Shown: piece by piece, positions 36,095 to 59,888 of the stretch
Layout: each line of letters starts with the position of its first letter
Position numbering within the stretch: position 1 is the first letter of the stretch
DNA from: a virus
Length of the DNA: 64,000 nt
Direction: 5' to 3' (one strand)
IMG/VR virus record: IMGVR_UViG_3300035698_022475
Coordinates: 49,459-113,458 of that record
Notes under the pieces: generated by a model
What the model saw: the letters and a program-made list of their open reading frames with translations, nothing else
What the model was told of the DNA's origin: nothing
The model's database searches: none
Made by a program: the position numbers and the translations under genes

Positions 36095-36293
36095 TTTTCA
36101 CCTCGTTGTACTGTTTGCCGCCTCCCTCCCAACCACAATCCTCACAGATCAGGGTCCCCATGGGGTGCGGGATATCATCCTTCGTTTCGCCCACATCGAT
36201 GTTACCACCTTTATGGATTGCATCAACATACGCAAAGGACGTGTACTCCTGGCGAAAGTAGAAGCGTGGGGAGTCGCACTTGGGGCAATTCAT
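36039..36293 (-). CDS. Zinc-ribbon protein (84 aa)
   Basis: ATG 36293 has GGA upstream and overlaps the previous stop by four bases. MNCPKCDS and CEDCGWEG (about 50 residues apart) are the two halves of a zinc ribbon. The tail is polar. It overlaps the next gene by 56 nt. Confidence 0.65.
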   Translation of the reverse strand: MNCPKCDSPRFYFRQEYTSFAYVDAIHKGGNIDVGETKDDIPHPMGTLICEDCGWEGGGKQYNEVKNDVSNLQERTPIGGPDKD

Positions 36294-36442
36294 CTTTTTT
36301 CCTTTCTTAGATCTCCAACCTCTTTGTAAGAGCCGTCTTTCATGAGTATAAAGTAACCAATTATTTCCACGCAAATACCTGACTCGTGAGCATAAAGGTA
36401 ATAGTGGCCTTTAGGCCACGCGTTACAGTAGATGTGCGTCAT
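36290..36442 (-). CDS. Met-x-His family micro-protein (50 aa, MTHIYCNAW)
   Basis: This is the last gene of the first Met-x-His array. The start shares bases with the preceding stop. After MTHI the protein is aromatic-rich (KGHYYLYAH) and strand-like, with a basic end. It is too short to judge alone, but start, spacing and composition match its neighbours. Confidence 0.65.
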   Translation of the reverse strand: MTHIYCNAWPKGHYYLYAHESGICVEIIGYFILMKDGSYKEVGDLRKEKR

Positions 36443-36636
36443 CGGCTACGCTCGCGAGGATAGTAGTAACCCGGATTTCCGATACATACGAAAACCCACC
36501 TGCCTGTGGCGGTTATGGTGTAATCGTAAGCGAGGATCATGTTCAGAGAGATCGCGTACTTGGGCCACGCAACAAGAGGGATAAGCCGTAAGGATATGCT
36601 GTGCGTAGTTACGTTCTCGGGCTCTATGTGTACCAT
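36439..36636 (-). CDS. Met-x-His family micro-protein (65 aa, MVHIEPENV)
   Basis: ATG 36636 is chosen for the MVHI start and because it overlaps the upstream stop as TAATG. The body alternates hydrophobic strands with Trp/Tyr and ends in NPGYYYPRERSR. No Shine-Dalgarno stands out, so translational coupling is likely. Confidence 0.65.
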   Translation of the reverse strand: MVHIEPENVTTHSISLRLIPLVAWPKYAISLNMILAYDYTITATGRWVFVCIGNPGYYYPRERSR

Positions 36637-36824
36637 TAGTGCCCCAGCACCCCAACCAATTGCCACCCGCACCCGCGATACGACTTACGGTAGTAGAGAG
36701 TTTTTCCTTTGCGGCGGCCATCTCTCGGCATTCTCGCCGGATAAAGGTAAACAGGAGTAACCAGCATTTCCCAGATCTCACGGGAGGGGTGCTTCCGCGT
36801 TATATCTATGTTGACGTGAGTCAA
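36636..36824 (-). CDS. Met-x-His family micro-protein, TTG start (62 aa, MTHVNID)
   Basis: AAGGAGG lies seven bases before a TTG that overlaps the upstream stop (TTGA). Initiation there gives MTHVNIDITRKH, matching the array's signature. An ATG in the same frame upstream would miss the pattern. Arg/Tyr-rich body ending GWQLVGVLGH. Confidence 0.7.
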   Translation of the reverse strand: MTHVNIDITRKHPSREIWEMLVTPVYLYPARMPRDGRRKGKTLYYRKSYRGCGWQLVGVLGH

Positions 36825-36979
36825 AATGGCACCTCCTTCCAGGTGAAGTCGTCGTCGAGAATGAAAGTGTACTTCTCTCTGAAGAAGTAATTGTCCGCGG
36901 TTGTCACCCACATCGAGATGTGCAGTAGTCCCCGGGAATTGTTTTCGACAGTAGCGTAGCGCGCATTGATGTGGGTCAT
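36821..36979 (-). CDS. Met-x-His family micro-protein (52 aa, MTHINARYA)
   Basis: Begins MTHINARYATVENNS. The middle (GLLHISMWVTTADNYFF) reads as a beta hairpin and the end is acidic and aromatic. Overlaps both neighbours by four bases. Confidence 0.7.
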   Translation of the reverse strand: MTHINARYATVENNSRGLLHISMWVTTADNYFFREKYTFILDDDFTWKEVPF

Positions 36980-37146
36980 CGCAGCCTCCACTCCTCGTCC
37001 AAGAACCAGTAGACCGTCATCTGACTCAGGTGAATTGTATACTTGGTGAAGCACTCTCCCCAGAACGTGACGGGCACTACAGTTATTAGGGCGCATCCTC
37101 TCCCCGCGGAGAGCTGCGGGTAATAGCTGACATCTATGTGGGTCAT
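36976..37146 (-). CDS. Met-x-His family micro-protein (56 aa, MTHIDVSYY)
   Basis: Begins MTHIDVSYYPQL. Strand-rich core (CALITVVPVTFW) and a Trp-containing acidic end. Four-base overlaps on both sides indicate coupled translation. Confidence 0.7.
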   Translation of the reverse strand: MTHIDVSYYPQLSAGRGCALITVVPVTFWGECFTKYTIHLSQMTVYWFLDEEWRLR

Positions 37147-37319
37147 CCCCAATCGTCCCAGGGTCTCCAGTACCCCCCGATAAGCGCATAACAGCCCGTA
37201 CCGCAGGCTGGAGCTACGTAGTAGGACCTCCCCCAGTGAGTGTTGTAATGCGTTATGTCCATGCAGAGAAATTCCCCGCCCATCTTGGAGCGGCGTTGCT
37301 TGATGTCCACGTGTATCAA
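37143..37319 (-). CDS. Met-x-His family micro-protein, TTG start (58 aa, MIHVDIKQ)
   Basis: A TTG overlapping the upstream stop (TTGA) gives MIHVDIKQRRSK, in line with its neighbours; AAGGA is just upstream. The end is Gly/Trp-rich (GGYWRPWDDWG). Confidence 0.7.
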   Translation of the reverse strand: MIHVDIKQRRSKMGGEFLCMDITHYNTHWGRSYYVAPACGTGCYALIGGYWRPWDDWG

Positions 37320-37791: not shown

Positions 37792-37995
37792 TCATCCCAA
37801 CACCTTTAGAAAGTCTGCGAAGGCCTCCTCAGTTATCAGGATCTTGTCCACCGGCAAAGGCTGGTTCAAGAAGGACTGTCCTGGACGTATTCCTCCGGTG
37901 GGAGGCGCATCATGGAATTCCCGACTGAAGCCGTCTCTACTGGACACCCAGCGGTATCCACCAACCCACGTTGATTTGCCATTGTAATGTCTCAC
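37792..37995 (-). CDS. Met-x-His family micro-protein, GTG start (67 aa, MRHYNGKST)
   Basis: GTG 37995 yields MRHYNGKSTWVGG, matching the MRH[FY] subgroup; AGAGA precedes it. Body with two Trp and a helical end (EEAFADFLKVLG). A longer ATG frame upstream is not supported. Confidence 0.65.
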   Translation of the reverse strand: MRHYNGKSTWVGGYRWVSSRDGFSREFHDAPPTGGIRPGQSFLNQPLPVDKILITEEAFADFLKVLG

Positions 37996-38204
37996 GCTGA
38001 CTCTCTTCTGTATGAAAAAGCCACGACACCCTCGCGCGTATCGAAGCGCCACGCTGTACGCCCGGGGGTTTCCACAGACCAAACATGAGTGCTCCGCTGT
38101 TCATTCCGGAGAATGCCTCCCCCTGTATGTGGGCGTCGTGTTACGGCATGCGCGTTGAGATGCCATATAGTGGTCATTCCTATTTGCTTTTCGAAGTGTT
38201 GCAT
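37992..38204 (-). CDS. Met-x-His family micro-protein (70 aa, MQHFEKQIG)
   Basis: Begins MQHFEKQIGMTTIW, followed by a His/Arg-rich body. Its ATG lies inside the 3' end of the preceding small gene. An internal ATG at codon 10 is an alternative start but would lose the signature. Confidence 0.6.
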   Translation of the reverse strand: MQHFEKQIGMTTIWHLNAHAVTRRPHTGGGILRNEQRSTHVWSVETPGRTAWRFDTREGVVAFSYRRESA

Positions 38205-38353
38205 ATTTTACTTAATTCCTCCTCTCGAATGTATCGAATGCTTCTGGGAGCGCGAGTAGGGTAGTGTTCAACCACAATTTCCCAATCAAGGCCCGGAGAC
38301 TTTGTAAACCATCGATTTCGAGTAACCCCAAGGCCCACATCATAATGCCGCAT
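38180..38353 (-). CDS. Met-x-His family micro-protein (57 aa, MRHYDVGLG)
   Basis: A 57-residue frame that starts MRHYDVGLGVTRNRW, sharing bases with the upstream stop (TGATG) and overlapping the next start by 25 nt. The stretch LDWEIVVEHYPTR resembles the second strand of its neighbours. Without it a 150-nt hole would break the operon. Confidence 0.7.
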   Translation of the reverse strand: MRHYDVGLGVTRNRWFTKSPGLDWEIVVEHYPTRAPRSIRYIREEELSKICNTSKSK

Positions 38354-38565
38354 CAGCCTCCTCCCCTCTCTACGCTCGCTTGGAGGTCTAGTAGAATCTC
38401 AGCTAGATCCTGGTCAGAGGACCTCTTGCTGCCAAAAGCGATGTCGCTCCAAAAGGAGAACGGCATTTGCCGAGAATAAACCTCGAGGACGAAACAGTTC
38501 CCGCCAACAACCGGGTCGAACCACACAACATCTCCTACGTCGTTGCCGTCATTGAAGTGTCTCAA
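38353..38565 (-). CDS. Met-x-His family micro-protein (70 aa, MRHFNDGND)
   Basis: Begins MRHFNDGNDVGDVVWF. Aromatic first half, then an acidic helical second half (DQDLAEILLDLQASV). Overlaps the upstream stop by four bases. Confidence 0.72.
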   Translation of the reverse strand: MRHFNDGNDVGDVVWFDPVVGGNCFVLEVYSRQMPFSFWSDIAFGSKRSSDQDLAEILLDLQASVERGGG

Positions 38566-38774
38566 TGTTCCGGCCTTCCCTGGGCGAAGTAGAAGGGGCC
38601 TATTCCGGGACCGCGAGGGTGCTGCTCGTACACGTGCTCAGAAAAGGCTCCCAGGTAAGTAGAGCCGTCGTACTCGACGTAGGGCTTCCAGCGACGATCC
38701 CCTACTACGGGAACACACCAGACGTACACAGGAGGTATGTCGTAATTAACGATTTTTCGGTCGAAGTGTCGCAC
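38562..38774 (-). CDS. Met-x-His family micro-protein, GTG start (70 aa, MRHFDRKIV)
   Basis: GGAGG precedes GTG 38774, giving MRHFDRKIVNYD. VYVWCVPVVG and the Tyr/Trp-rich region after it suggest a small beta sheet. The longer in-frame ATG upstream overlaps another gene and lacks the signature. Confidence 0.7.
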   Translation of the reverse strand: MRHFDRKIVNYDIPPVYVWCVPVVGDRRWKPYVEYDGSTYLGAFSEHVYEQHPRGPGIGPFYFAQGRPEH

Positions 38775-38962
38775 TAATATCCTCCTGTGGGCCAAAAGCG
38801 GCGGCCCAACCATCGGGGTCGTTGAAGTTTAGGTGAACCATGTCCTGTACGGTAAATCGACATACCCTGCCCGTTACAGCCTTCATTTACTTGATCCCAC
38901 CCCCCCGAAGTAGTCTCCATCCAGATTAAGTAATAGTCACCGTTTCGGTCGAAGTGTCTCAT
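38774..38962 (-). CDS. Met-x-His family micro-protein (62 aa, MRHFDRNGD)
   Basis: ATG 38962 gives MRHFDRNGDYYLIWMETTSG, sharing MRHFDR with the following gene. AGGAAA lies upstream. The start falls 26 nt before the upstream gene's stop. Confidence 0.72.
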   Translation of the reverse strand: MRHFDRNGDYYLIWMETTSGGWDQVNEGCNGQGMSIYRTGHGSPKLQRPRWLGRRFWPTGGY

Positions 38963-39158
38963 CGTATTTCCTGTACTGCTCAATTATCGCTTCGGCCTGA
39001 GCCTGTCCGGCCTGCTGTGCGTGCATTAACCCTAGGGTCATATCCGCACGGAGGTCTACAACCCTCCCGTAGTGGTCGAAGAACACCTGGTCGAACCCGT
39101 CGCACGAATCCAGCCAGCCGGGACTACCCATTATGTTGTTTCCATCGAAGTGTCTCAT
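38937..39158 (-). CDS. Met-x-His family micro-protein (73 aa, MRHFDGNNI)
   Basis: ATG 39158 gives MRHFDGNNIMGSPGWL. DGFDQVFFDHY echoes GGWDQVN of the next paralogue. The C-terminal half is a Gln/Ala-rich helix, an accretion not seen in the others. Confidence 0.72.
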   Translation of the reverse strand: MRHFDGNNIMGSPGWLDSCDGFDQVFFDHYGRVVDLRADMTLGLMHAQQAGQAQAEAIIEQYRKYDETLRPKR

Positions 39159-39613
39159 CGGGGACGCCGAGTAACGAACTCGATGATCTCTGCCAGCAGC
39201 CGGCGCCTTCCTACTGTCGAGGACGTCCAATACGCCTTCCTGACAGGCTCCAGCAGCTCGAGGATGTGATTGGTAGCCTTGTCCCTCTTCTCCCGATTAT
39301 GGTCCTCCATGACGGCCTCGGCATTGATGTCTTTGGCGCGCCACTCGGCGAGCTGCTCTGAAGTATCCTCCTGGCCCTGGTATCTCCAGTTACCATAAGC
39401 ATTACAGCCCCCATCGTCATCACGGGAAACATTACCTTCGTAGACCCCACCAATCACGTCGTGACTCCGCTTACCCGCGGGACCAAGCGGTGCTGTAAAA
39501 GACATAACCTCCCCGCCCGGGTCTACATACTGATGTCCGAACACACACTTACTTCCCGTATTTTGGACCTTGCGCCCGATGAACTTCCATTTTTCTATTT
39601 TCTTTTCGGTCAT
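39155..39613 (-). CDS. Unknown protein within the Met-x-His array (152 aa)
   Basis: Starts MTEKKIEKWKFIGRKVQ, so it is not a member of the micro-protein family. Gly/Asp-rich middle, then a helical end. Its first 65 nt overlap the end of a broken family member. No function assigned. Confidence 0.6.
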   Translation of the reverse strand: MTEKKIEKWKFIGRKVQNTGSKCVFGHQYVDPGGEVMSFTAPLGPAGKRSHDVIGGVYEGNVSRDDDGGCNAYGNWRYQGQEDTSEQLAEWRAKDINAEAVMEDHNREKRDKATNHILELLEPVRKAYWTSSTVGRRRLLAEIIEFVTRRPR

Positions 39614-39776
39614 TTTCTCGCTCCTCGCAATCGTTGTGGAGGTATACCCTGTTGTTGATTACCATTAAACGTAACGCAATGGCGCCCATCACTCGTGAGG
39701 TACCGCCGCAGTAGTGACACACAACAACGACATCGTCGCGGTAACATAGCGGACATTAGATTTCTACGTGAATCAT
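39549..39776 (-). pseudogene. Met-x-His zinc-ribbon paralogue with in-frame TAA at codon 7
   Basis: ATG 39776 reads MIHVEI and then TAA. The same frame then continues CPLCYRDD ... CHYCGG to a stop at 39549, a total of 76 codons. The intact neighbour at 39778-39996 begins MTHFEVICPLC, so codon 7 (Ile there) has become a stop here. Either this is a nonsense-mutated gene, or the stop is read through, or downstream reinitiation is used. Position one base after the upstream stop fits a once-normal gene. Confidence 0.5.
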
Positions 39777-39777: not shown

Positions 39778-39996
39778 TTACTTCAGCGCCAGGCAGTCGC
39801 CGTCGATGTTGTAGAGGTCCCAGGCGAACTCACACTCGGAAGCCGTCCCGCATCCAAGACACGTCATCGCGTAATAAAGCTTCAGGCGGCCCCCCTTCTG
39901 GATGCGCGGCTGCACACCGCCCGTACACTCGAAATGACAATCAGAATCAGTTAGACCTCCCGCACAGAGAGGACAGATCACCTCGAAGTGAGTCAT
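39778..39996 (-). CDS. Met-x-His family zinc-ribbon protein (72 aa, MTHFEVICPLC)
   Basis: GAAAGGAG precedes ATG 39996. MTHFEVICPLC runs the family signature straight into a zinc knuckle. Further pairs (DCHFEC, CLGC with SEC) suggest one or two zinc sites. First gene of its transcript, behind the promoter at 40019-40027. Confidence 0.72.
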   Translation of the reverse strand: MTHFEVICPLCAGGLTDSDCHFECTGGVQPRIQKGGRLKLYYAMTCLGCGTASECEFAWDLYNIDGDCLALK

Positions 39997-47906: not shown

Positions 47907-48490
47907 GAAATAGTCCTCGACGTGGGAACCTGGGTGTAGACCCAATTGAAGAACTTCATCGCCCACCTCTTACTCTTCCAGCGTTTGACATGAAAGCCGG
48001 TTACGCTCTTGGGTGGAAACTTGAGTTCTTTCGCTGTGTCGAAGTAATGACAGCGAGAAGTAACAAAGCCTGGATAACTACGGAGCAACTTCCCCGCGCC
48101 CTCTATTAGAGGCGGCGGACCAATCCAGAAGCACTCACGATCTCCTACCTGGTCAAGCAAACGCCGAACAGGCCCACGCACACAAGAAGCGGGGGTTCTG
48201 AGGGTGTTCATTCCCAGGACGATGATGACAGTGTCTGGTTTAAACTCGTTGACCAGCTCTGCCATTTGGTTGTTTCGAGCGAAGGTGCTGGGACGCGCTC
48301 CGATACGCGAATCAATTTTGAGCGTAGAGGGCGCCGCTTCGAACGTCTCCTCTATATACAGCCCCAACCCTGAGCCCTCTCCGATGAGAGAATCCCCGAT
48401 CACGAGTATCTTTCGATACCGCCACACAGGATTCGTGTCTGCGGAGGCTGTTGCCGCGACGAGCAGAACAGCCATGATAAGGTATCTCAT
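47903..48490 (-). CDS. Secreted SGNH/GDSL hydrolase (195 aa)
   Basis: A signal peptide at 1-18 is followed by VIGDSLIG (Ser34, block I), a Gly in RIGARPS (block II), VLGMNT (block III, GxND-like) and TGFHV (block V His). All SGNH catalytic positions are accounted for, though the block III Asn/Asp pair is modified. It predicts an exported esterase or acyltransferase, perhaps acting on cell-wall or LPS acetyl groups (superinfection exclusion or lysis). Confidence 0.75.
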   Translation of the reverse strand: MRYLIMAVLLVAATASADTNPVWRYRKILVIGDSLIGEGSGLGLYIEETFEAAPSTLKIDSRIGARPSTFARNNQMAELVNEFKPDTVIIVLGMNTLRTPASCVRGPVRRLLDQVGDRECFWIGPPPLIEGAGKLLRSYPGFVTSRCHYFDTAKELKFPPKSVTGFHVKRWKSKRWAMKFFNWVYTQVPTSRTIS

Positions 48491-48873
48491 TTATTTTTCT
48501 CCAGTATCTCGCGTTCCTTGTCCAGGTCACGGTTGAGGGCTCCGTCTTCGTTGAACTTGTCACCGAAGCGGGCCTTGAGTTTGGCGATGTTCTTCTCCCA
48601 CACCTCTTCGAAAGAGATACCGAGAGCATCGCACAGAAGCGCCAAGTACCAGAAGGTGTCGCCGGCTTCTTCAGCCAGGTTAACCTCGTCGAGCGCGCCA
48701 CCGTAGTAGATGTGCTTCTTCACAGCATCGAGCATCTCTCCACCTTCTGTGGAAATGCCAATAGCCGCATGGAGCAGCCGTTGAGTTTTAGGAGACTCCA
48801 GACGATGAGCGATCTGCTCGTGGTCTCGGCTCTCGGTCTTGACGGCATTGCTTACGTATTCTTTTGGATTCAC
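48487..48873 (-). CDS. MazG-like nucleotide pyrophosphohydrolase (128 aa)
   Basis: E43-x2-E46 and E69-x2-D72 (EGGEMLDA, EEAGDTFWY) are the metal ligands of the all-alpha MazG/dUTPase-like superfamily. It hydrolyses an NTP or dNTP to NMP and pyrophosphate. Phage relatives include MazG that lowers (p)ppGpp and MazZ that makes dGMP from dGTP in 2-aminoadenine pathways. With a PurA/PurZ-family gene 6 kb away, the MazZ reading deserves testing. Confidence 0.8.
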   Translation of the reverse strand: MNPKEYVSNAVKTESRDHEQIAHRLESPKTQRLLHAAIGISTEGGEMLDAVKKHIYYGGALDEVNLAEEAGDTFWYLALLCDALGISFEEVWEKNIAKLKARFGDKFNEDGALNRDLDKEREILEKNK

Positions 48874-48886: not shown

Positions 48887-49141
48887 TCAGTAGTCCTGAC
48901 GTCGCATGTTCCACACGTCATGGAGCATACGAAGACAGGTGTTCTCGGGGACATCTTCAAAATGAGTTCCTGTCTTGATACCATACTCCCCGCAAAGGGG
49001 GACAGTCGTATGAAGACTATAACGCCGGCTAAGGACGTTTTCACTCGGATAATGCGTAGCTTCTACAATAAGTGTGAATACCGGGGCGGCAATACCGTTA
49101 TTGAACTGCCGCTCCAGAGTCTTCCCAGTAACGTGATACAC
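48887..49141 (-). CDS. Met-x-His family protein (84 aa, MYHVTGKTL)
   Basis: Begins MYHVTGKTLERQF. Beta-rich, ends in charged residues. Last gene of the second array in transcription order, 13 bp before the MazG gene's start. Confidence 0.68.
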   Translation of the reverse strand: MYHVTGKTLERQFNNGIAAPVFTLIVEATHYPSENVLSRRYSLHTTVPLCGEYGIKTGTHFEDVPENTCLRMLHDVWNMRRQDY

Positions 49142-49149
49142 GCGCCCTC

Positions 49150-49458
49150 CTATTCGTAAAACGGTTGTGGTTTATCGTGATGGATATTGACTCCGTATTT
49201 AGGGCAAAGGTTATGTTTTGAAACGACGATAGAAAGGGGATTACGCTCTGTGTTGTACTCAACCATCCGGTCATTGCCGCGGTCAAACCAGTCGGAATGG
49301 TCTCGCCACCAAGTACAGTACACGAAACCCTCCCGGTGTCGGGACAGAGGTGCTTCGTTCACTACGACCGAATACTCGCAAAAGCTTTTCTCATAAGGGC
49401 CTCCCCTATCATGCCATGATATTTGACGTCGAAATGTTATCCGGCTTACGTGGACCAT
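49150..49458 (-). CDS. Met-x-His family protein (102 aa, MVHVSRITF)
   Basis: Begins MVHVSRITFRRQ. His/Trp/Arg-rich with YCTWWRDHSDWF near 48. Larger than most members. Its ATG sits directly on the preceding stop. Confidence 0.68.
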   Translation of the reverse strand: MVHVSRITFRRQISWHDRGGPYEKSFCEYSVVVNEAPLSRHREGFVYCTWWRDHSDWFDRGNDRMVEYNTERNPLSIVVSKHNLCPKYGVNIHHDKPQPFYE

Positions 49459-49727
49459 TAGAATACTCTCCCTACCAACACACTGTGTTCGCGAGGCAAG
49501 ATAGGCCCATACTCCCAGAGAGTCCGGGGGTTCTCACGAAGAACATGATACAAGGCCGCAATCCCATTAACCGCGTAGTACGAATACTGCGTGGTGTGAG
49601 TTGCGTAGTCTTTCAGGTATACAGTATTTTTAAAGACTCGCCGAAGTGCGACTCTCACATAGAAGAACAGATTGTCGTCCACCCCTCTAGTTTGAAGCTC
49701 TAAAATAACACGGTCAACGTGGTGCAT
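49458..49727 (-). CDS. Met-x-His family protein (89 aa, MHHVDRVIL)
   Basis: ATG 49727 gives MHHVDRVILELQTR; an earlier in-frame ATG overlaps the upstream gene and lacks the signature. FFYVRVALRRVF near 24 resembles EFRFFY-type segments of the next two genes. Confidence 0.65.
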   Translation of the reverse strand: MHHVDRVILELQTRGVDDNLFFYVRVALRRVFKNTVYLKDYATHTTQYSYYAVNGIAALYHVLRENPRTLWEYGPILPREHSVLVGRVF

Positions 49728-49908
49728 TATACCACTCGTATATCCCTCGGAGACGTGAGGAGTGGGGCACCTGGTGGTGCAAAAAGAGAAAGGATTCATA
49801 GCACCTCAGTGTGGGCATCCAGTAGTAAAATCTAAACTCAACGCAGTAGGTGCTGGTGATATGTGGGTGTCTTACAGTTAGCACCTCAACACTAGAGAAG
49901 TGGACCAT
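49714..49908 (-). CDS. Met-x-His family protein (64 aa, MVHFSSVEV)
   Basis: Begins MVHFSSVEVLTVRHP. Alignable along its whole length with the upstream neighbour: FRFYY, then ESFLFL, then RGIYEWY. Clear tandem duplicate. Confidence 0.72.
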   Translation of the reverse strand: MVHFSSVEVLTVRHPHITSTYCVEFRFYYWMPTLRCYESFLFLHHQVPHSSRLRGIYEWYNAPR

Positions 49909-50114
49909 CAGAAAATCCTCCCCCAAGTCAACGACTCGTACCACCGGTATATCCAACGAAGACACGGGCCGTGGAGTACCTCGTTGTACCGATAGAGAAA
50001 GGACTCGGCAATACGTAACTTCCCAATGCGCGAGAGGTCTATGTAGAAAAATCTGAAGTCGATGGCGTAAGGACGTTTTAGCCTTACCAGCTCGAGCCCT
50101 GAGAAATGCTCCAT
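49908..50114 (-). CDS. Met-x-His family protein (68 aa, MEHFSGLEL)
   Basis: Begins MEHFSGLELVRLKRP. FRFFY, ESFLY and RWIYRWYESL match the following paralogue in order and spacing. The ATG comes directly after the TTTACGACGTAAA palindrome. Confidence 0.72.
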   Translation of the reverse strand: MEHFSGLELVRLKRPYAIDFRFFYIDLSRIGKLRIAESFLYRYNEVLHGPCLRWIYRWYESLTWGRIF

Positions 50115-50115
50115 C

Positions 50116-50128
50116 TTTACGTCGTAAA
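50116..50128. repeat. TTTACGTCGTAAA palindrome, copy 3
   Basis: The dyad covers the stop codon of the upstream gene (50117-50404) and ends one base before the next ATG (50114). Confidence 0.5.
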
Positions 50129-50404
50129 CCCAAAGGCGGCGATTACACAGCCCAGTGGTTTTACGTTTGGGGGAATAGAGTGCCGGGTGAGTCTACCCTC
50201 ATAAGACCCATCCGGACGAGGATACGGCTTAGCAATAGTCTTGTGCACTGGGACGGGGCAGATAAACTGGGGAGCCTCTTCTAGAAGGCCTATGCTGCTT
50301 GTGACGCTTGTACCAGCCCCTTCGTGAGTATAGAGAGCCACAACCTGGATGACGTTGTCGAGATCCCTGTCCAAAGGACGCTGAGACATTAGGATAAAAT
50401 GCAT
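50117..50404 (-). CDS. Unknown small protein at the head of a Met-x-His unit (95 aa)
   Basis: AAAGGAGG precedes ATG 50404. Begins MHFILMSQRPLDRD, so the His is at position 2 instead of 3. Beta-rich with several prolines. First gene of the transcript from promoter 50428-50436. Confidence 0.62.
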   Translation of the reverse strand: MHFILMSQRPLDRDLDNVIQVVALYTHEGAGTSVTSSIGLLEEAPQFICPVPVHKTIAKPYPRPDGSYEGRLTRHSIPPNVKPLGCVIAAFGFTT

Positions 50405-50427
50405 CCTAAACCTCCTTTCGTTATTGA

Positions 50428-50436
50428 TTTATACCA
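50428..50436 (-). promoter_or_regulatory. Extended -10 promoter
   Basis: Minus-strand CTTTTGG followed by TATAAA, 23 bp before ATG 50404. The leader has AAAGGAGG. Confidence 0.62.
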
Positions 50437-50447
50437 AAAGAAGGTCG

Positions 50448-50771
50448 CTACTTGAGGCCAGAGGCCTTTCCTGCTGTAGGCATCGGCAGCTTGGGTGGTG
50501 TGGCCGCTTTCACGGGCCCCATCTTATTCGCGATAGTCGTGGACGGGAGAGTAACCTGTTGTGCCGACATAGGCGGAGTCAGCTTCGGTCTCTGCCCCGT
50601 ATTACTCGGCATTGTAGTTTTCGGAGTTGTGAAGTTTGCCTTGAGAGGCGACGGTGCACGAGTGACACTCCTCCCCAATCCTGCTGGAGTTCCGGTGCCG
50701 GTTCCGAAGCTCATGCCGGCAGCGACCTTGGCTATGACTTCGTCGGCTATTTGTGATGCTGTTTTTTTCAT
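50448..50771 (-). CDS. Protein with MKKTxSQIADEV N-terminal motif (107 aa)
   Basis: ATG 50771 overlaps the upstream stop (ATGA). MKKTASQIADEVIAKV is nearly identical to the start of the gene at 27267. The remainder is Pro/Thr/Ala/Lys-rich and probably disordered. The shared helix may direct both proteins to one partner. Confidence 0.65.
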   Translation of the reverse strand: MKKTASQIADEVIAKVAAGMSFGTGTGTPAGLGRSVTRAPSPLKANFTTPKTTMPSNTGQRPKLTPPMSAQQVTLPSTTIANKMGPVKAATPPKLPMPTAGKASGLK

Positions 50772-50938
50772 CGTAACCCCATAATCTCGTAATACGTAAA
50801 CATCCAGGCACCCGCACAGAGCAGGTAGATCACGGGAGGCTTGATATCTCCACCCTCCCACGTCAGCAACAAGAGAAGGGACGCTACAACAGCGCCAAAC
50901 ACGGAGCCCCAGAAAAGTCGTTTGTTTCTCTTCTTCAT
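50768..50938 (-). CDS. Small two-helix membrane protein, probably leaderless (56 aa)
   Basis: MKKRNKRLFW, then two hydrophobic segments (about 10-26 and 34-50). The ATG lies seven bases after a TATACT -10 box and has no Shine-Dalgarno, so transcription and translation would start together. The stop overlaps the next start. Confidence 0.65.
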   Translation of the reverse strand: MKKRNKRLFWGSVFGAVVASLLLLLTWEGGDIKPPVIYLLCAGAWMFTYYEIMGLR

Positions 50939-50945
50939 GTCTCAA

Positions 50946-50951
50946 AGTATA
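50946..50951 (-). promoter_or_regulatory. -10 element of a leaderless unit
   Basis: TATACT on the minus strand, with TG two bases upstream. The next ATG is seven bases on. It follows directly on the terminator at 50960-50990. Confidence 0.55.
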
Positions 50952-50959
50952 GGCAGAAA

Positions 50960-50990
50960 CCAAAAGAAACGGAAGGGCTAAGCCCCTCCC
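50960..50990 (-). terminator. Terminator of the gene at 51002
   Basis: GGAGGGGCT pairs with AGCCCTTCC (50971-50989), followed by GTTTCTTTTGG on the minus strand. Confidence 0.72.
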
Positions 50991-51001
50991 GCTCCTACGG
51001 G

Positions 51002-51388
51002 CTAGAGCCGCATGAAGGCTCTCTCAATGTCGCAGGTCTGCTCGTGTGTGAGGCCGGGACGCTGTTGTGCTTCGTACAATTGCTGGCCGTCGACGCGCTC
51101 GAGGCCCAGCCGAAAGGACTCCTCGATGGTGAGCAGCCTCAGCTTGGTACCAGACCAGTAGTAGGCCCGTAAGGGTTTGTCCTTCTTCCAGACGGATACG
51201 ACGCCATCTTCATTCCTGGCCACCCTGAGTATTATACCCGACTCACTCTCCTGCATTACCGACCCCAGAGTCTCAGGGCTGCACTGCGCAGGCTTGACCC
51301 TCTTGTAGGTCCGCTCCTTCGAATTGACCGTAAGAAAGCCGTTCTCCTTCATCTCGGCACGTACAAAGCGTGCTTCCTTGGATGCCAT
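51002..51388 (-). CDS. Unknown protein (128 aa)
   Basis: AAAGGAGG precedes ATG 51388. N-terminal half basic and strand-like, C-terminal part helical. It is a one-gene unit between a promoter and a terminator. Confidence 0.62.
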   Translation of the reverse strand: MASKEARFVRAEMKENGFLTVNSKERTYKRVKPAQCSPETLGSVMQESESGIILRVARNEDGVVSVWKKDKPLRAYYWSGTKLRLLTIEESFRLGLERVDGQQLYEAQQRPGLTHEQTCDIERAFMRL

Positions 51389-51416
51389 GTCACACCTCCT
51401 TTTAGGTTGTCATGTT

Positions 51417-51425
51417 CTTGTACCA
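51417..51425 (-). promoter_or_regulatory. Extended -10 promoter
   Basis: Minus-strand TGG followed by TACAAG, about 30 bp before ATG 51388. The same nine-base core TGGTACAAG occurs at 59988-59996. Confidence 0.5.
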
Positions 51426-51430
51426 CAACG

Positions 51431-51757
51431 TCAGGGGCGATACCCAGCCTTGCGGTTCGTCACATTATGTTCTTGCTCAAGCATCTCGTACTGGCCATTA
51501 GGCCAACGACGCCTCACGTGAACCACAACAGTAAACGTACGTGGGCACAGAAACGCTAACGCCGCCAACCGCAAGTCCGATAGGCTCCGAAGTTTTTGGA
51601 TAAGCATCTGGGTCGGAGGAAAGCCTCCAAAGTACTCATACCGCGAGTGGTTATTACTCGGAGTAACGTAATTAATATGTCCTTCACACAGCGACGTACG
51701 ATTACGGTCTTTGGCGTCGAAGCTGTACGCCACACGGATAGTATCAAACTGTAGCAT
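51431..51757 (-). CDS. Met-x-Gln variant of the array family (108 aa, MLQFDTIRV)
   Basis: Begins MLQFDTIRVAYSFD: the family's [FY][DE] after position 3, but Gln instead of His. VVVHVRRRWPNG near the end is strand-like. It overlaps the upstream gene by 14 nt. Confidence 0.6.
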   Translation of the reverse strand: MLQFDTIRVAYSFDAKDRNRTSLCEGHINYVTPSNNHSRYEYFGGFPPTQMLIQKLRSLSDLRLAALAFLCPRTFTVVVHVRRRWPNGQYEMLEQEHNVTNRKAGYRP

Positions 51758-52082
51758 CGAAGGGATACGACCTTTCCGGCTGCAACTCGAAGATATGTAC
51801 GGTTTGGGTGCCGTTGTCGATAACTGCTCCGCCGAGGTATCTGAAACGCTGGGGATTAAGCACCTCGCCGTAAACCGGCCTCAAGCAATAACCCTGAGTG
51901 GCCAAGTATAGATCTACGGGTACCGCCCCCACTTCGTCAACCGGCGCCCAGTACACAACTGCGGGAGTGTTCCCTTCTGTGCAAACCCCGACAAGAATTG
52001 AACCTTTGGGGAATTGCTCTGTGACGGGGCCGTTGCTAGTGTAGAGAGGAAGTACCGAGAGGGTGTACTCAGTCTGTGACAT
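51744..52082 (-). CDS. Unknown beta-rich protein (112 aa)
   Basis: Begins MSQTEYTLSVLPLYTSNG. Regular strand pattern with Gly/Asn/Pro turns and no charged helices. No signature or motif recognised. Confidence 0.6.
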   Translation of the reverse strand: MSQTEYTLSVLPLYTSNGPVTEQFPKGSILVGVCTEGNTPAVVYWAPVDEVGAVPVDLYLATQGYCLRPVYGEVLNPQRFRYLGGAVIDNGTQTVHIFELQPERSYPFDATV

Positions 52083-52704
52083 CCACGAGGCCGGTGCTGG
52101 TCAGGAGCCGTCCCTGGGGATCGGTCTGATAGAAATTGTTCTCACAGGCACCGTACTCCACCTTCCATGTGCCGGCATCAACGTCCCACTCGGCGTGCGC
52201 TGTGCACAGCATGTCGGTAGCACCTTCGCCCTCGGTAAGCAGCTCACCGGAGAGGGGGTCACGGCGTCGGAACCTGGTGCCCTCTTTGAGTTGACTCCAG
52301 TACCCCGACTTCCACTCGTGTGACCCTGCATTCCACACCTCGAGCATGACAGGAGGATTCACCTTCACGTCGGGATCCTCATGGGGCGGCAGGCCCTGGG
52401 CGTAGGCTGTTGCCAAACGCTGCAGCGCTTCGCTCTGCTCTTTGGAGTCATGCAGCTCCTTGTGGAGACGCTGTGACTCGATGTAGTCGTGGTTGAAGAG
52501 AAGCGCGTGATGTACGCCCTCGTTGACCCGCGGACTTGAATGCGGGACTTCCCGAAGACGATACTCCGGCGGGAGCACGAGGTGCAGAAGGCCGGGTGTG
52601 GCCTTGAGGTCAAGAGTAAGTACGAGCTTGCTGTCCACGATGACCTTGACAGGCCCCTCGACAGACTCGGTTTTGAATTCAACAATTGTGGGATCAATGT
52701 CCAT
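52069..52704 (-). CDS. Unknown two-part protein (211 aa)
   Basis: ATG 52704 (MDIDPTIVEF) has AGGAGG upstream and is preferred over an upstream in-frame start. Residues 1-65 look like a beta domain, 75-115 a helix, and 125-211 a second beta domain with two Cys. Function unknown. Confidence 0.6.
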   Translation of the reverse strand: MDIDPTIVEFKTESVEGPVKVIVDSKLVLTLDLKATPGLLHLVLPPEYRLREVPHSSPRVNEGVHHALLFNHDYIESQRLHKELHDSKEQSEALQRLATAYAQGLPPHEDPDVKVNPPVMLEVWNAGSHEWKSGYWSQLKEGTRFRRRDPLSGELLTEGEGATDMLCTAHAEWDVDAGTWKVEYGACENNFYQTDPQGRLLTSTGLVDVTD

Positions 52705-52966
52705 TGTTTTCCTCCTGGTTTGGCTTAACGTGTCTAAACGTATACACACGTTCTTTGAAAGTAAAGGAGCGTCGAAACATAATATTAGAGTACATGTGGG
52801 TCGTCGCTGACGAGTAGATGTCTCGGGGCATGAGGACATGTAAGTGAAGAGACCGGGGAAGCTGGCTATTACGAATAATAGTGTACTCTCCTTCCCTTGA
52901 TCCGGGGACGTCGTAAGTCAGAAGTACGTGGATACCTTCACCCCCGAGAATGCCTACGTGCCGCAT
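52694..52966 (-). CDS. Met-x-His family protein (90 aa, MRHVGILGG)
   Basis: Begins MRHVGILGGEGIHVLLTYDV. Regular strands, then a basic stretch. Overlaps the next gene by 11 nt and the previous by 13. Confidence 0.68.
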   Translation of the reverse strand: MRHVGILGGEGIHVLLTYDVPGSREGEYTIIRNSQLPRSLHLHVLMPRDIYSSATTHMYSNIMFRRSFTFKERVYTFRHVKPNQEENNGH

Positions 52967-53193
52967 CGGCTTGCTATGCCCCGGGCAAGCGCGGCCACCC
53001 TCTTGGCTCCTGTGTCACCAAAGCGGTCAACGTAAGCAAGATATGGGCTACAAGGGTTAAAGGGAAGCTTAATAATGTTGTAGATACGAGGGCCTATCAG
53101 GAGGGAATAGAAGCCAGGGGCTTCACTAGTATCCCACATCCACACATAAAGCTCGCCGAAAGAGTTCAGTTTAGCTTGTTCAAAGTGCATCAT
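52954..53193 (-). CDS. Met-x-His family protein (79 aa, MMHFEQAKL)
   Basis: Begins MMHFEQAKLNSFGELYVWMW; the second ATG is a possible alternative start. LYVWMWDTS matches the aromatic strand of other members. Its start overlaps the upstream stop. Confidence 0.68.
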   Translation of the reverse strand: MMHFEQAKLNSFGELYVWMWDTSEAPGFYSLLIGPRIYNIIKLPFNPCSPYLAYVDRFGDTGAKRVAALARGIASRCGT

Positions 53194-53372
53194 CAAAGCC
53201 CCCGCGGCATCGGAATTAAGCCTGTGTGGATAAGCTTCTCCAATACTTCTTTTGTGAGAGTATCTTCCGGATTATCGAGGAAGATCGATTGAAAGCTCCA
53301 ACCCGATCTTGAGTCTCTGAACCGGTAGGCGACCCCGCCTGGAGCGGAGACAGTGCCTTCGTAATGTTTCAA
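53193..53372 (-). CDS. Met-x-His family protein, TTG start (59 aa, MKHYEGTVS)
   Basis: The frame has no ATG near its beginning. A TTG that overlaps the upstream stop (TTGA) gives MKHYEGTVSAPGGVAYRF, fitting the array. GWSFQSIFLD follows, then a helical end. It fills an otherwise empty 175-nt interval. Confidence 0.68.
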   Translation of the reverse strand: MKHYEGTVSAPGGVAYRFRDSRSGWSFQSIFLDNPEDTLTKEVLEKLIHTGLIPMPRGL

Positions 53373-53578
53373 AATACCCTCGGGCGACCTAGTTGCGCCC
53401 GGATGAAGTTCGACATCTCTTCTCCCATCGCAGCCTCCATAGCGGTTTGGGTGCGGGTGACGTAGGGACCTTCTGTGATTTGTCCAGCTCCGTGCTTGTG
53501 AGTTATCTCAACCCACGAGTACTTGGACCTTGTAGGAATAAGGGGATGCTGGAGGTATTTGCAGTCGAAGTGTCTCAT
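53369..53578 (-). CDS. Met-x-His family protein (69 aa, MRHFDCKYL)
   Basis: Begins MRHFDCKYLQHPLIP. KYSWVEITH is the aromatic strand. The end is a Met/Ala/Glu helix and a basic tail. Confidence 0.7.
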   Translation of the reverse strand: MRHFDCKYLQHPLIPTRSKYSWVEITHKHGAGQITEGPYVTRTQTAMEAAMGEEMSNFIRAQLGRPRVF

Positions 53579-53581
53579 TCG

Positions 53582-53710
53582 TCAAACCGCCCATGAACCA
53601 GGATCGAGATAGTGCTCTGTAACCCTGGACCCACCTACCGCCCCCCCGGCACGCCAAGAGAGCACCCACAAATACTTAAAGAAAGGGCGTCGCCCATCAA
53701 AGTGTCTCAT
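53582..53710 (-). CDS. Met-x-His family protein, shortest (42 aa, MRHFDGRRP)
   Basis: ATG 53710 gives MRHFDGRRPFFKYLWVLSW, then a Gly-rich turn and a third strand. At 42 residues it shows the minimal body of the family: signature, aromatic strand, turn, strand. Confidence 0.68.
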   Translation of the reverse strand: MRHFDGRRPFFKYLWVLSWRAGGAVGGSRVTEHYLDPGSWAV

Positions 53711-53891
53711 TGGATTCCTCCTCTCTTCGCCGCAGGCGAGCAGCGCACACAGGACTGAGACCATATTTTCCGATTGAGTGAGGATAATACATTGAGTAAA
53801 TGAGTCGCCAATTCCGCGGCCCGCGCCTGGTCCAGCGTACAGCCCAATTAGCGCCGCCGCCGTCAGGGTCTAATGAATCAAAATGCCTCAT
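53697..53891 (-). CDS. Met-x-His family protein (64 aa, MRHFDSLDP)
   Basis: Begins MRHFDSLDPDGGGANWAVRW. WRLIYSMYYP is a further strand and the tail is Arg/Glu-rich. Overlaps both neighbours by 14 nt. Confidence 0.7.
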   Translation of the reverse strand: MRHFDSLDPDGGGANWAVRWTRRGPRNWRLIYSMYYPHSIGKYGLSPVCAARLRRREEESNETL

Positions 53892-54207
53892 GGTCCCTCC
53901 TTTCTACCTTTTGGATACTACCATTAAAGTGGTCTCGGACAACATCATCTCCCACATGGACACTGCCGCCCGCAACCGCCCAGTAGGTTTGTATGGATCT
54001 GACACAGTCAGGAAACAGAGGAGCTATCAGCGCTTCCGATATCTCGGCCTGGTCCCAGCCTTCTAACGAGGGGTCGTTAGCCTGAAAGCTACACTCGGCG
54101 ATAAAGTCACACCCTCGGGAGCCGCTGTAGTAGATCTCGACGAGTCCGCGAGCATTCGCTCCCCAGTTTCCCTCGCAGAAGCATTCTTGCAGATGAACTT
54201 GAAACAT
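53878..54207 (-). CDS. Met-x-Gln variant of the array family (109 aa, MFQVHLQEC)
   Basis: AGGAG precedes ATG 54207. MFQVHLQECFCEGNWG keeps the pattern of a short strand after Met but has Gln at position 3. Longer and more acidic than its neighbours, four Cys. Confidence 0.62.
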   Translation of the reverse strand: MFQVHLQECFCEGNWGANARGLVEIYYSGSRGCDFIAECSFQANDPSLEGWDQAEISEALIAPLFPDCVRSIQTYWAVAGGSVHVGDDVVRDHFNGSIQKVERRDHEAF

Positions 54208-54237
54208 TAGTAATCTCCTAAAGAGTGAATCATATTC

Positions 54238-54459
54238 TCACCACCCAAGCATATCGTCAGGCTGCCAGTGAAAAGGGTGTACACGCAGAACGCTACCTGT
54301 AGTCATCACTCCGGTTACTACTTGAGGCGCTCTGATACTGTACAGCTCTCCAATCACTCGTCCACGGGAAATATTTCTGTATAAGATTACGACGGAATAC
54401 TTGGTGTAGGCCGCCATCTCCCCTGCGATGCTGGGCTCGGCGTGGTAAACGTGAATCAT
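54238..54459 (-). CDS. Met-x-His family protein (73 aa, MIHVYHAEP)
   Basis: Begins MIHVYHAEPSIAGEM. Two strands (YSVVILYRN) and a C-terminal block TTGSVLRVHPFHW shared with the next two genes. Confidence 0.7.
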   Translation of the reverse strand: MIHVYHAEPSIAGEMAAYTKYSVVILYRNISRGRVIGELYSIRAPQVVTGVMTTGSVLRVHPFHWQPDDMLGW

Positions 54460-54668
54460 GTCCTTACCCCCTTGTGAATAGTTAAGGGTACGCAGTTCCA
54501 GCGCCGGCTGGGTTGTCGGAGGACGCTACCCGTAGCGCGCACCTCGTAGCGCCGCAGCTCCATTCCAATCGTTGTTACAACCGGATGCCATGTTACTATG
54601 AATGTATATATAGCTCCGGTGGAATATGTCATTATCGGAATAGCTTTAGTGTGTTCAATGTGAATCAT
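54456..54668 (-). CDS. Met-x-His family protein (70 aa, MIHIEHTKA)
   Basis: ATG 54668 gives MIHIEHTKAIPIMTYS. The block YEVRATGSVLRQPSRRW corresponds to the downstream paralogue's TTGSVLRVHPFHW, so the two are sister genes. Confidence 0.7.
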   Translation of the reverse strand: MIHIEHTKAIPIMTYSTGAIYTFIVTWHPVVTTIGMELRRYEVRATGSVLRQPSRRWNCVPLTIHKGVRT

Positions 54669-54898
54669 CTCGACCACGCCGCTACTGAGGATACCAAAAT
54701 CCAGTGCTTGGGGGCTATTCGAAGAATACTCCCCGCCCTCCTCCCACTACCCGCACCCAAAGGAGCACAAATGGTCCAATTATCGATGCGCCTTGGCGCA
54801 GGATCTGCGGAGTTATAGTACTCAAGACGAAGAGCGTATATTGACGAAAAGCTATTATGTCGAAGAGTAGTAAGACCGCGGGGGCTTACGTGAATCAC
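54665..54898 (-). CDS. Met-x-His family protein, GTG start (77 aa, MIHVSPRGL)
   Basis: GTG 54898 (GGTGGG upstream) gives MIHVSPRGLTTLRH. RAGSILRIAPKHW matches the GSVLR block of the two following genes. Confidence 0.68.
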   Translation of the reverse strand: MIHVSPRGLTTLRHNSFSSIYALRLEYYNSADPAPRRIDNWTICAPLGAGSGRRAGSILRIAPKHWILVSSVAAWSR

Positions 54899-55155
54899 GG
54901 TCCCACCAATACGCGATACCAAAGCTCCGTCTTATACCAATTATCCGCGTTGGGAGGGACAACGTAGTCGTAGTATTCTGTATAGACGGCGCCTGGGGAT
55001 AGCCCCCTGAGTCCCCTATAGTGGAACTCGAAAACAACAGTAGCAGGACGAGGAGGTGAAGGGGCCTTAACGCGTTTACCTGTATTAATACTGTGCACCG
55101 CCGGTCGACCTGGCCGTGGGAGCGTACGCTCTTTAAGATACGCTGTCACGAACAT
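54895..55155 (-). CDS. Unknown protein next to the array (86 aa)
   Basis: GAGG lies seven bases before ATG 55155 (MFVTAYLKERT). TVVFEFHYRGLRG and YTEYYDYVVPP suggest a beta structure like the neighbours', but the His signature is absent. Possibly a distant relative. Confidence 0.6.
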   Translation of the reverse strand: MFVTAYLKERTLPRPGRPAVHSINTGKRVKAPSPPRPATVVFEFHYRGLRGLSPGAVYTEYYDYVVPPNADNWYKTELWYRVLVGP

Positions 55156-55867
55156 CGGGGAGCCTCTTGAGCCCACGCACGATACTCTTTGCGTGGAAGG
55201 TCACACGCCGATCACCCGGGTAAACGACTGCGGAGATTGCTTGTATTGTGGTATTCCACTCAGCACGCTCGGCCTCCAACGCCGCGACGCGCTTCTCCAA
55301 CTCCTGCTGGTCATCGCAGGGGGCGCCGGGCTCGTGCACCCACTTACGGGCTATCTCACACAGGGCCACAAACACTGCATCTTTGTCACGCTCCAGATGT
55401 CCCAGCTTGTAGTAGGACACCATGTCAGGATGTGTCTTGGCTTCAGGGTCACGAACCTCCCCGTAAACCCATCCCATCTTTTCGTAGGCTTTCATCCAGT
55501 CCTGATGCAGAGCTGCAGCGTTGCTGCTACGGCCAGGCCCCATCTGTTTCTCGATGACTTTCTCGAACTGCTCACGGAAAGCCAGCTCACGGTCGTCGTA
55601 GGGCTCGGGGACTATGGGAGCCTCCGCGGCTGCCGCAGCAATACGAGTTCCCTCGTAAACGAACTTGGCTCTTCTGTAATTCAGACTCATGACTTTTTCC
55701 TCCCGAACGTGCAGGGGCTCCATCGTACAACCCCGACAGACAGCCCGGCACGCAGGAGGCCAGTCATGGCAACGCGCCTCGTACTCCAACTCTCCGCCTT
55801 CGGGAGCCTCGCCTACTCCGACAGTTTGTCCACAATGAGCACACTCACCTATCTTACTCGTCTCCAT
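55133..55867 (-). CDS. Zinc-finger and RyR-domain protein (244 aa)
   Basis: ATG 55867 (METSKIGECAHCG, AGGAG upstream) is preferred to a longer frame. Two Cys-x2-Cys pairs (ECAHC, VCRGC) bracket a zinc site at 9-48. At about 120-180 HQDWMKAYEKMGWVYG ... KTHPDMVSYYKL ... RDKDAVF is a full RyR domain. A coiled coil follows. Such phage RyR domains are thought to bind nucleotide-derived ligands, though this is not established. Confidence 0.75.
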   Translation of the reverse strand: METSKIGECAHCGQTVGVGEAPEGGELEYEARCHDWPPACRAVCRGCTMEPLHVREEKVMSLNYRRAKFVYEGTRIAAAAAEAPIVPEPYDDRELAFREQFEKVIEKQMGPGRSSNAAALHQDWMKAYEKMGWVYGEVRDPEAKTHPDMVSYYKLGHLERDKDAVFVALCEIARKWVHEPGAPCDDQQELEKRVAALEAERAEWNTTIQAISAVVYPGDRRVTFHAKSIVRGLKRLPDVRDSVS

Positions 55868-58092: not shown

Positions 58093-58232
58093 ATTACCTC
58101 CAGTGTATAGCTCCTAAAAAAACGGCCCTCTAACAACATAATATCATTAAACTTTTTTGTGTTGTGTAGAACGCATAGCTTTTGACGTTTATACATCGCG
58201 CTAAGTCATTGAAATTACATAACGCCAAATTC

Positions 58233-58260
58233 CCCAAAACCGTTGCCTTTCTACGTAAGA
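58233..58260. repeat. 28-bp repeat, copy 1
   Basis: Reads CCCAAAACCGTTGCC then TTTCTACGTAAGA. Copy 2 differs at four positions and copy 3 is more diverged. Confidence 0.7.
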
Positions 58261-58561
58261 CCTAAGGGCTTGAAATCATTGAAAACATTAGGGGTCAAAA
58301 TACGATGTATTTTTACCTACCTCGTAATTGAATGATTACAAGAAGTTGCGGGACAGTTGTGTCGTGACGCGTTGCGAACGTACGATGCATTTTCCACCTT
58401 TTTCCCAAAACCACACCCTTTGCCAAACGTCTTTTGTGAATATCATTACGTTTTCTCCTGCCAAGTAGGAAGGTCAATGGGTTGTCATTTGAGTCGGACG
58501 AGAACTGTTTTATCTTGAAGAGCGATACATCCCCGCGGTTGCTGGGCCGGAGAGGCAACTT

Positions 58562-58589
58562 CCCAAAACCATTACCTTTCTACATAAGA
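58562..58589. repeat. 28-bp repeat, copy 2
   Basis: Reads CCCAAAACCATTACC then TTTCTACATAAGA. On the minus strand it starts just after TGG-TATAAC, an extended -10 match, so it may lie in an early transcribed leader. Confidence 0.7.
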
Positions 58590-59282
58590 GTTATACCACT
58601 AATGGTCTCGGGAAGTAAACTCCATTATAAGCACCATATAATTATATGTTCGACCCCACACACGGCCCGGGGGTCGAGCATTCAGACCTTTTGAAAACCC
58701 CAACGCGGGAAGCCCAACAACCGTACGGCTCAAAAAAATATACATAGCCTTTTTAGCTTGCCCGTGCGGCGAGCAACGTGGAGAATCACGTACTTTCACA
58801 TAAAAAATACAAAAGGGGTTTTTCCAACTTACCCCACAAACGCGATACAAAAGGGGCTCCTACACTATCCCACTCCACTACACCACCAACCACACAGACT
58901 CACAATGTACTCAATATAAGTAGATAAGCATACATTTCATCACCAACCTTTCCAGCGCTAAGGCCTACCGCTACTGACTTTCAACAGTATTATATCAAGA
59001 GGCGATAGACCAAAAATCTCGCACGCGTAGCTTCGGATACACACACATACTATACATCTACAATGAGTATATAAAAGCCAATAAAACCGCTTTTGTGTAT
59101 ATGTGACTAAATAAGGTGATTCTTCTCATTGCCTTGTTTACGCCCACCCCCCGCCATTCTAATTTACCTTATACTTACACATACTTAACCCTTAAAAACA
59201 ACCCCATGCTCTCGTAAACGCTTGCCCCCACTTCAAGCACGAGGTTTGCACCACCAGCCTTACCCCCTAACCCTATCATACC

Positions 59283-59312
59283 ATTATACTTTCTCTTCTT
59301 AAGTACTGTCAA
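59283..59312 (-). promoter_or_regulatory. Consensus sigma70 promoter
   Basis: Minus-strand TTGACA (59312-59307) and TATAAT (59288-59283), both perfect, are separated by 18 bp. No gene starts nearby; the next on this strand begins at 58092. The transcript would have a 1.2-kb leader or be a non-coding RNA. Confidence 0.75.
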
Positions 59313-59329
59313 TTGATTGGGACCCCGAA

Positions 59330-59370
59330 CACTTCTTGCCCTACTTAGAGTAGGGCTGGAAGTGCTTTTA
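59330..59370. terminator. Strong hairpin upstream of the consensus promoter
   Basis: CACTTC/GAAGTG and GCCCTAC/GTAGGGC stack around a 2x2 internal loop with loop TTAGA (59330-59364). CTTTTA follows on the plus strand. It may insulate the promoter at 59283-59312 or stop a plus-strand transcript. Confidence 0.6.
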
Positions 59371-59399
59371 GCGATTTACGTCTCTCGTCCTGCTCTGTG

Positions 59400-59580: not shown

Positions 59581-59603
59581 ATCCCCCGATATCCACTTAT
59601 ATC

Positions 59604-59678: not shown

Positions 59679-59888
59679 TCAATTGGGGGGACGATAGGTG
59701 TGTTCTAATACTTCAGTGAGGGGTGTGTCGTCCGAGAGGAAGAGCCTGTCCCAGGGGGCGATGGGGTCTTTGACCCGCTGTGAGTGGGAATGGGAGACGT
59801 TCCCGGCACTATCTACTACTACGGAAAATACAGACCCTCCAACACCCCCGGGCCACTTCGCTACTCCAATTAAATTTACGTGGTACAT
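59679..59888 (-). CDS. Met-x-His family protein, isolated copy (69 aa, MYHVNLIGV)
   Basis: Begins MYHVNLIGVAKWPGG; GGAAG precedes ATG 59888. It lies alone between its own promoter (59988-59996) and a terminator. Strand-rich first half, acidic/Pro-rich end. Confidence 0.7.
   Translation of the reverse strand: MYHVNLIGVAKWPGGVGGSVFSVVVDSAGNVSHSHSQRVKDPIAPWDRLFLSDDTPLTEVLEHTYRPPN

What the first reader, a model, noticed from the sequence alone, without database searches (positions are those of the whole stretch)
48887..54898. Second and third Met-x-His arrays, with recognisable sub-families
The same N-terminal signature returns in five genes at 48887-50114, and in nine genes between 52694 and 54898. 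The two Gln-for-His variants (51431-51757 and 53878-54207) fall just outside or inside the third block. An isolated member lies at 59679. With the first array this makes 29 intact members. Neighbouring genes align best with each other (49714 with 49908; 54238, 54456 and 54665), so the arrays grow by local duplication followed by fast divergence.
Basis: seen in the sequence. Interest (0 to 1): 0.82.

Follow-up and report, generated by a model that had tools for sequence, protein, structure and literature searches.

The report
Phage arrays of tiny Met-x-His proteins
A virus of bacteria carries about 29 tiny genes in tight tandem arrays whose proteins share little more than their first five residues (Met-any-His-greasy-polar); they match no known family, are missing at the same places in the one related virus that could be compared, and are probably a fast-changing set of proteins made early in infection against the host.

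Summary
In detail: five M-x-H genes at 48887-50114, nine at 52694-54898, one at 59679, 29 in all with the first array, all on the minus strand, mostly with overlapping stop and start codons. The record has 20 tandem pairs of such ORFs; eleven terminase relatives have none. Codon choice at positions 4-5 follows ordinary usage, so the protein is conserved, not the DNA. Beyond residue 5 most members are unalignable. Local duplication is clear for 49714/49908 (E 3e-13; 72% DNA repeat), supported for 54665/54238, and shown statistically by neighbours sharing residue 2 (p 0.0002). Moderate-confidence AF2 models of two sub-families both give beta-beta-beta-alpha with His3 at the start of strand 1; no Pfam, PHROGs, PADLOC, PDB or BFVD relative was found. 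The only relative with a syntenic accessory half (86 kb) lacks the arrays at all three places: they are lineage-specific. Another relative expands a different small-protein family. The record's only perfect sigma-70 promoter lies upstream of array 3. Best reading: an early-expressed, lineage-specific bank of small anti-host proteins with a shared N-terminal strand. The function is inferred.

The parts
52694..54898 (-). Array 3: nine M-x-H genes (54665, 54456, 54238, 53697, 53582, 53369, 53193, 52954, 52694) plus the Gln variant 53878-54207
   Evidence: ORFs and N-termini; overlaps of 1-14 bases
48887..50114 (-). Array 2: five M-x-H genes (49908, 49714, 49458, 49150, 48887)
   Evidence: 49714/49908 tandem duplicates
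36290..37319 (-). Array 1b: six M-x-H genes, mostly MTH[IV][DN]
37792..39158 (-). Array 1a: seven M-x-H genes, mostly MRH[FY][DN]
39778..39996 (-). MTHFEVICPLC, zinc-ribbon-like member at the head of array 1 (His3 may be coincidental)
39549..39776 (-). broken copy of the preceding gene: MIHVEI, in-frame stop, CPLC...
   Evidence: translation
54207..54233 (-). stub MIHSLGDY* between 54238 and 53878
   Evidence: read from the sequence
59679..59888 (-). isolated M-x-H gene MYHVN
51431..51757 (-). Gln-for-His variant MLQFD
59283..59312 (-). perfect sigma-70 consensus TTGACA-18-TATAAT, the only one in the record, reading towards array 3
   Evidence: a consensus match, not proof of function
50965..50996 (-). 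terminator-like hairpin between arrays 3 and 2
   Evidence: 10 such sites found against 10.3 expected, so only the stem length (13 pairs) speaks for it

Best explanation
The arrays are a lineage-specific, tandemly duplicating set of small phage proteins (42-102 aa). Shown: the ORFs stand in overlapping minus-strand chains, are constrained at the protein level at their start (M-x-H-hydrophobic-[D/N/E/S]) while their bodies are almost free, and are absent from the syntenic places of one relative. Shown for some pairs only: growth by local duplication. Supported by moderate-confidence models: two sub-families fold as beta-beta-beta-alpha with His3 at the beginning of strand 1. Inferred: the first strand is the common working part (self-assembly or docking on one shared partner) and the rest of the domain varies to meet different or changing host proteins. 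Inferred: array 3 is expressed early from the consensus host-type promoter at 59.3 kb, and the set works as a bank of small host-takeover or counter-defence proteins that the phage expands and discards quickly.
For: 20 tandem pairs against 0 in eleven relatives. Protein-level constraint: codon identity at codons 4 and 5 equals codon-usage expectation. Duplication. Gene decay beside intact copies: broken copy, stub. Absence in the syntenic relative G028 although flanking genes keep their order. Same predicted topology in two separately aligned sub-families. Only perfect sigma-70 promoter upstream of array 3. Relatives expand other small families in their accessory halves.
Against: No member has a known homologue, so the function rests on location, promoter and turnover alone. 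The two models are of moderate confidence (pLDDT 82 and 71, pTM 0.58 and 0.46) and hhalign finds no similarity between the sub-families beyond the start. Some members score low in the codon model. The promoter is a consensus match; arrays 1 and 2 have none nearby. Only one syntenic relative was available.
Confidence: 0.45

Rival explanations
1. Weakly constrained duplicates: the arrays are a neutral or nearly neutral product of duplication, kept open for a while, with the start conserved mainly because the copies are young or the start is needed for translation coupling.
For: Low codon-model scores, stub and broken copy, absence in the syntenic relative.
Against: Bodies have diverged beyond recognition while His3 stays, and codon identity at codons 4-5 is that of saturated synonymous sites, so the start is not conserved through youth. 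Ribosome-binding sites need no His codon. 29 open frames of 42-102 aa in a row are hard to keep without selection (27 array ORFs, 1842 codons, against 40-102 stops in the other frames; partly by construction).
Confidence: 0.2
2. Amino-terminal copper/nickel site: M-x-H with a free amino group is formally the ATCUN arrangement (His at position 3, residue 2 free), so the proteins may share a metal-binding start and little else.
For: Invariant His3 with a free residue 2 in 29 members; the ATCUN definition is from papers found (e.g. PMC9698028, abstract only).
Against: Residues 4 and 5 are constrained too, which ATCUN does not need. About a third of the members have Thr or Val at residue 2, where the initiator Met is usually removed (established knowledge of methionine aminopeptidase), which would put His at position 2.
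Confidence: 0.07
3. The N-terminus is a delivery or assembly tag, like the capsid-targeting start of T4 internal proteins (recalled), and the proteins are packaged in the virion and injected.
For: Short conserved start with variable bodies; many small paralogues. The comparison with T4 is from memory.
Against: The arrays sit in the accessory half, not among the structural genes, downstream of a host-type promoter. A different start, MKK[ST]A.QIADxV, is the better candidate for a virion tag in this phage group.
Confidence: 0.1
4. A DNA-level element at each start (recombination anchor or regulatory site) is what is conserved, and the shared residues follow from it.
For: Some copies in array 1a share about 23 nt around the start; codon 3 is CAC slightly more often than expected (0.70 vs 0.55 pair identity).
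Against: At codons 4 and 5 identical-codon frequencies equal codon-usage expectation (0.44 vs 0.44; 0.45 vs 0.49), and no base outside the ribosome-binding site and codons 1, 3, 4, 5 is conserved.
Confidence: 0.04

Closest known systems
Segmental amplification of tifA, a small toxin inhibitor gene of phage T4 (PMC9391042, abstract read)
   Same: A small accessory phage gene multiplies by recombination; accessory genes reflect past hosts; a counter-defence role is the reading proposed here
   Different: tifA amplifications arose in an evolution experiment from one known inhibitor; here the copies are natural, about 29, strongly diverged, and their function is unknown
MTPFE array of relative G013 (L093 3959-5081)
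   Same: Four small tandem coupled genes in a related phage, with a shared start
   Different: Similar over their whole length, unrelated to the M-x-H proteins, only four copies
CxxC-H-C small-protein family of relative G017
   Same: Lineage-specific expansion in several clusters, short conserved motif, variable remainder
   Different: A zinc-type motif in the body, not a fixed N-terminus; joined by BLAST links into 16 genes, some links doubtful
T4 internal head proteins with a capsid-targeting start (recalled, not tested)
   Same: Short shared N-terminus in front of variable small proteins
   Different: Longer start, cleaved, virion-borne; no evidence of either here

Membership tests
One homologous family of all 29 members | Shared start M-x-H-hydrophobic-polar | tested here: met
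   His3 in 29 of 29 chosen members (chosen by it), residue 4 hydrophobic, residue 5 D/N/E/S in most
One homologous family of all 29 members | Detectable similarity beyond residue 5 | tested here: inconclusive
   Met for 49714/49908 and 54665/54238; mean z 0.2 over all pairs; hhalign between sub-families aligns only residues 1-9 at probability 1%
One homologous family of all 29 members | Common fold | tested here: inconclusive
   Two models with the same strand-strand-strand-helix order; other members not modelled; no coordinates compared
Known protein families (Pfam, PHROGs, PADLOC) | Profile match | tested here: not met
   Best E 0.04 in Pfam and 0.028 in PHROGs, each for a single member; none in PADLOC
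COMM-domain or other solved fold | Structural match well above background | tested here: inconclusive
   Best second-look Z 4.5, COMM domains, 2.7 A over 51 residues, tied with unrelated rows
Phage counter-defence proteins | Inhibition of a host defence or enzyme | not testable with these tools
   Only location, promoter and turnover point that way
ATCUN metal-binding N-termini | Free amino terminus with His at position 3 of the mature protein | tested here: inconclusive
   His3 in all, but Met probably removed where residue 2 is Thr or Val (Met removal not measured)

The most novel reading that the evidence does not exclude
A new protein family in which the N-terminal strand M-x-H-h-[DNES] is a fixed docking element and the rest of a small beta-beta-beta-alpha domain is a freely diversifying surface, so that one phage carries about 29 interchangeable binders against one conserved host machine or against many host defences.
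Probability: 0.2. Interest if true: 0.85.

Novelty: new variant of a known kind. Interest (0 to 1): 0.55.

Why it matters
Small unannotated accessory genes fill much of large phage genomes. A set held together by five residues, expanded in one lineage and absent from the syntenic place of a relative, while other relatives expand different small families, gives a concrete system for asking how phages generate new anti-host proteins and why such families stay invisible to homology searches.

Tried and rejected
DNA-level motif as the cause: not supported by codon choice. Tandem MRHFD pattern in viral contigs: none. Three-in-a-row M-x-H-h-[DN] pattern in viral contigs: 21 hits; those displayed (the output was cut) are low-complexity repeats read in odd frames or loci without tandem pairs. 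The MRHFD pattern in genome contigs: one stretch, L158, whose gene calls show no array. Close relatives of the 667-aa gene and of gene 52069 in viral contigs: none. PurA/PurZ-like gene: relatives at 47% or less. Fold searches: no match at E below 0.07. Phage RNA-polymerase inhibitor P7 appears at Z 3.6 for the MRHFD model, tied with unrelated proteins, so not used. Hydrophobic-moment test of the bodies did not show an amphipathic beta pattern (mean z -0.5). Paper searches found no description of such an array.

Full report
Setting. The window is bases 49459-113458 of a 113,458-base IMG/VR virus record, a tailed phage with a terminase, a family-A DNA polymerase and a primase-like protein. The terminase finds 29 related contigs at 38-87% identity. 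Eleven were fetched. The left part of the record and the window up to about 21 kb are largely collinear with them; the rest of the window, which holds the arrays, has few homologues there. The nearest relative, G001 (87% terminase), is a fragment that does not show this half.

Observation. ORFs of 45-125 aa starting M-x-H-[FVIY] number 37 in the record and form 20 tandem pairs; the eleven relatives have 1-23 such ORFs each and no tandem pair. In the relatives His is residue 3 in 1.6% of predicted genes. Successive genes mostly overlap by 1-26 bases or lie within a few bases of each other, as in translationally coupled chains (established knowledge). Codon-usage scores of some members are low, which fits young or fast-changing genes but leaves individual ORFs uncertain.

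What is conserved. Residue 3 is His, residue 4 is F, V, I or Y, residue 5 mostly D, N, E or S; residue 2 is free over the set but shared by neighbours. At codons 4 and 5 the frequency of identical codons among pairs with the same residue is what codon usage predicts, so the constraint is on the protein. Upstream there is only a ribosome-binding site. Beyond residue 5 the mean all-against-all z-score is 0.2.

How the arrays grow. 49714 and 49908 are clear tandem duplicates in protein and DNA. 54665, 54456 and 54238 share a GS[VI]LR...W segment. Adjacent genes are more similar than permuted order allows, also without the best pair (p 0.01). The stub MIHSLGDY* (54233-54207) and the broken copy MIHVEI*CPLC beside the intact MTHFEVICPLC gene look like gene death. 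For the majority of members descent from one ancestor is inferred from the start alone.

Comparison with a syntenic relative. A search with the gene at 42531-43475 found L155, part of an 86,218-base contig, G028. G028 shares structural and helicase genes and their order with the record, and keeps homologues of the 667-aa gene (22%), 43475-43846 (62%), 42531-43475 (68%), the PurA/PurZ-like gene (54%) and 37316-37738 (55%) in the same order. Between and beside them, where arrays 1, 2 and 3 would lie, it has other genes and no M-x-H array. G028 has no terminase match, being a fragment. One relative cannot tell gain from loss, but the arrays are not fixtures of these places. Other relatives expand other small genes: a 16-gene BLAST-linked set in G017, mostly CxxC-H-C proteins, and four MTPFE genes in G013.

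Structure. AlphaFold2 models of 49714 (pLDDT 82, pTM 0.58) and 53193 (pLDDT 71, pTM 0.46), from separate alignments, both read strand-strand-strand-helix, with His3 in or at the start of the first strand. The other four models of 49714 had pLDDT 61-66, so the best one was selected from an uneven set. Searches gave no convincing known fold.

Expression. The record has one perfect sigma-70 consensus promoter, at 59312-59283, reading into the 667-aa gene and on towards array 3. It lies in a 1.5-kb stretch of low G+C without a clear gene. Terminator-like hairpins with long stems lie at 60029-60002, 50996-50965 and 45814-45787, though hairpins are not over-represented as a class around arrays 2 and 3. 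This suggests early transcription of array 3 by host RNA polymerase; for arrays 1 and 2 there is no such sign.

Interpretation. I commit to an early-expressed, lineage-specific bank of small anti-host proteins whose first strand is the common working part. Shown: the ORFs and their chains, the protein-level constraint at the start, the absence in the syntenic relative. Supported: local duplication for some members, a common topology for two sub-families. Inferred: early expression, docking by the first strand, anti-host function. Weakly constrained drift is the strongest rival.

Noticed in passing
60024-60471: Six copies of a 20-nt repeat (TACGCCCTCTTAnGGGCAAA) with a perfect 12-base core at irregular 59-149-nt spacing, upstream of the isolated M-x-H gene; core expected 0.2 times in the window, found 6 times.
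   Followed up: partly
58090-59680: A 1.5-kb stretch of low G+C without a clear gene, holding the record's only perfect sigma-70 promoter and a 33-nt direct repeat (58228, 58557; 85%), a candidate early control region.
   Followed up: partly
41413-42534; 48487-48873; L002:10771-13794: A PurA/PurZ-like enzyme, a MazG-like protein and a family-A polymerase with sub-cut-off PurZ and DpoZ matches; together they raise the question of 2-aminoadenine DNA, not settled here.
   Followed up: partly
L003:1177-2373 (+): A reverse transcriptase (RVT_1, best NCBIfam matches retron Ec67 and St85 below cut-off) with homologues in most of the fetched relatives, in the core half of the genome.
   Followed up: no
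50448-50771; G001 43073-43339 and 61721-61930: Proteins sharing the start MKK[ST]A.QIADxV..KVA, repeated within G001; a candidate virion or processing tag of this phage group.
   Followed up: no
55133-55867: A RyR-domain protein (Pfam E 1e-8) next to array 3.
   Followed up: no
L098-L107 (G017): A 16-gene BLAST-linked set, mostly small CxxC-H-C proteins, clustered near 9-11, 110-111, 161-163 and 182-183 kb of a related phage.
   Followed up: partly
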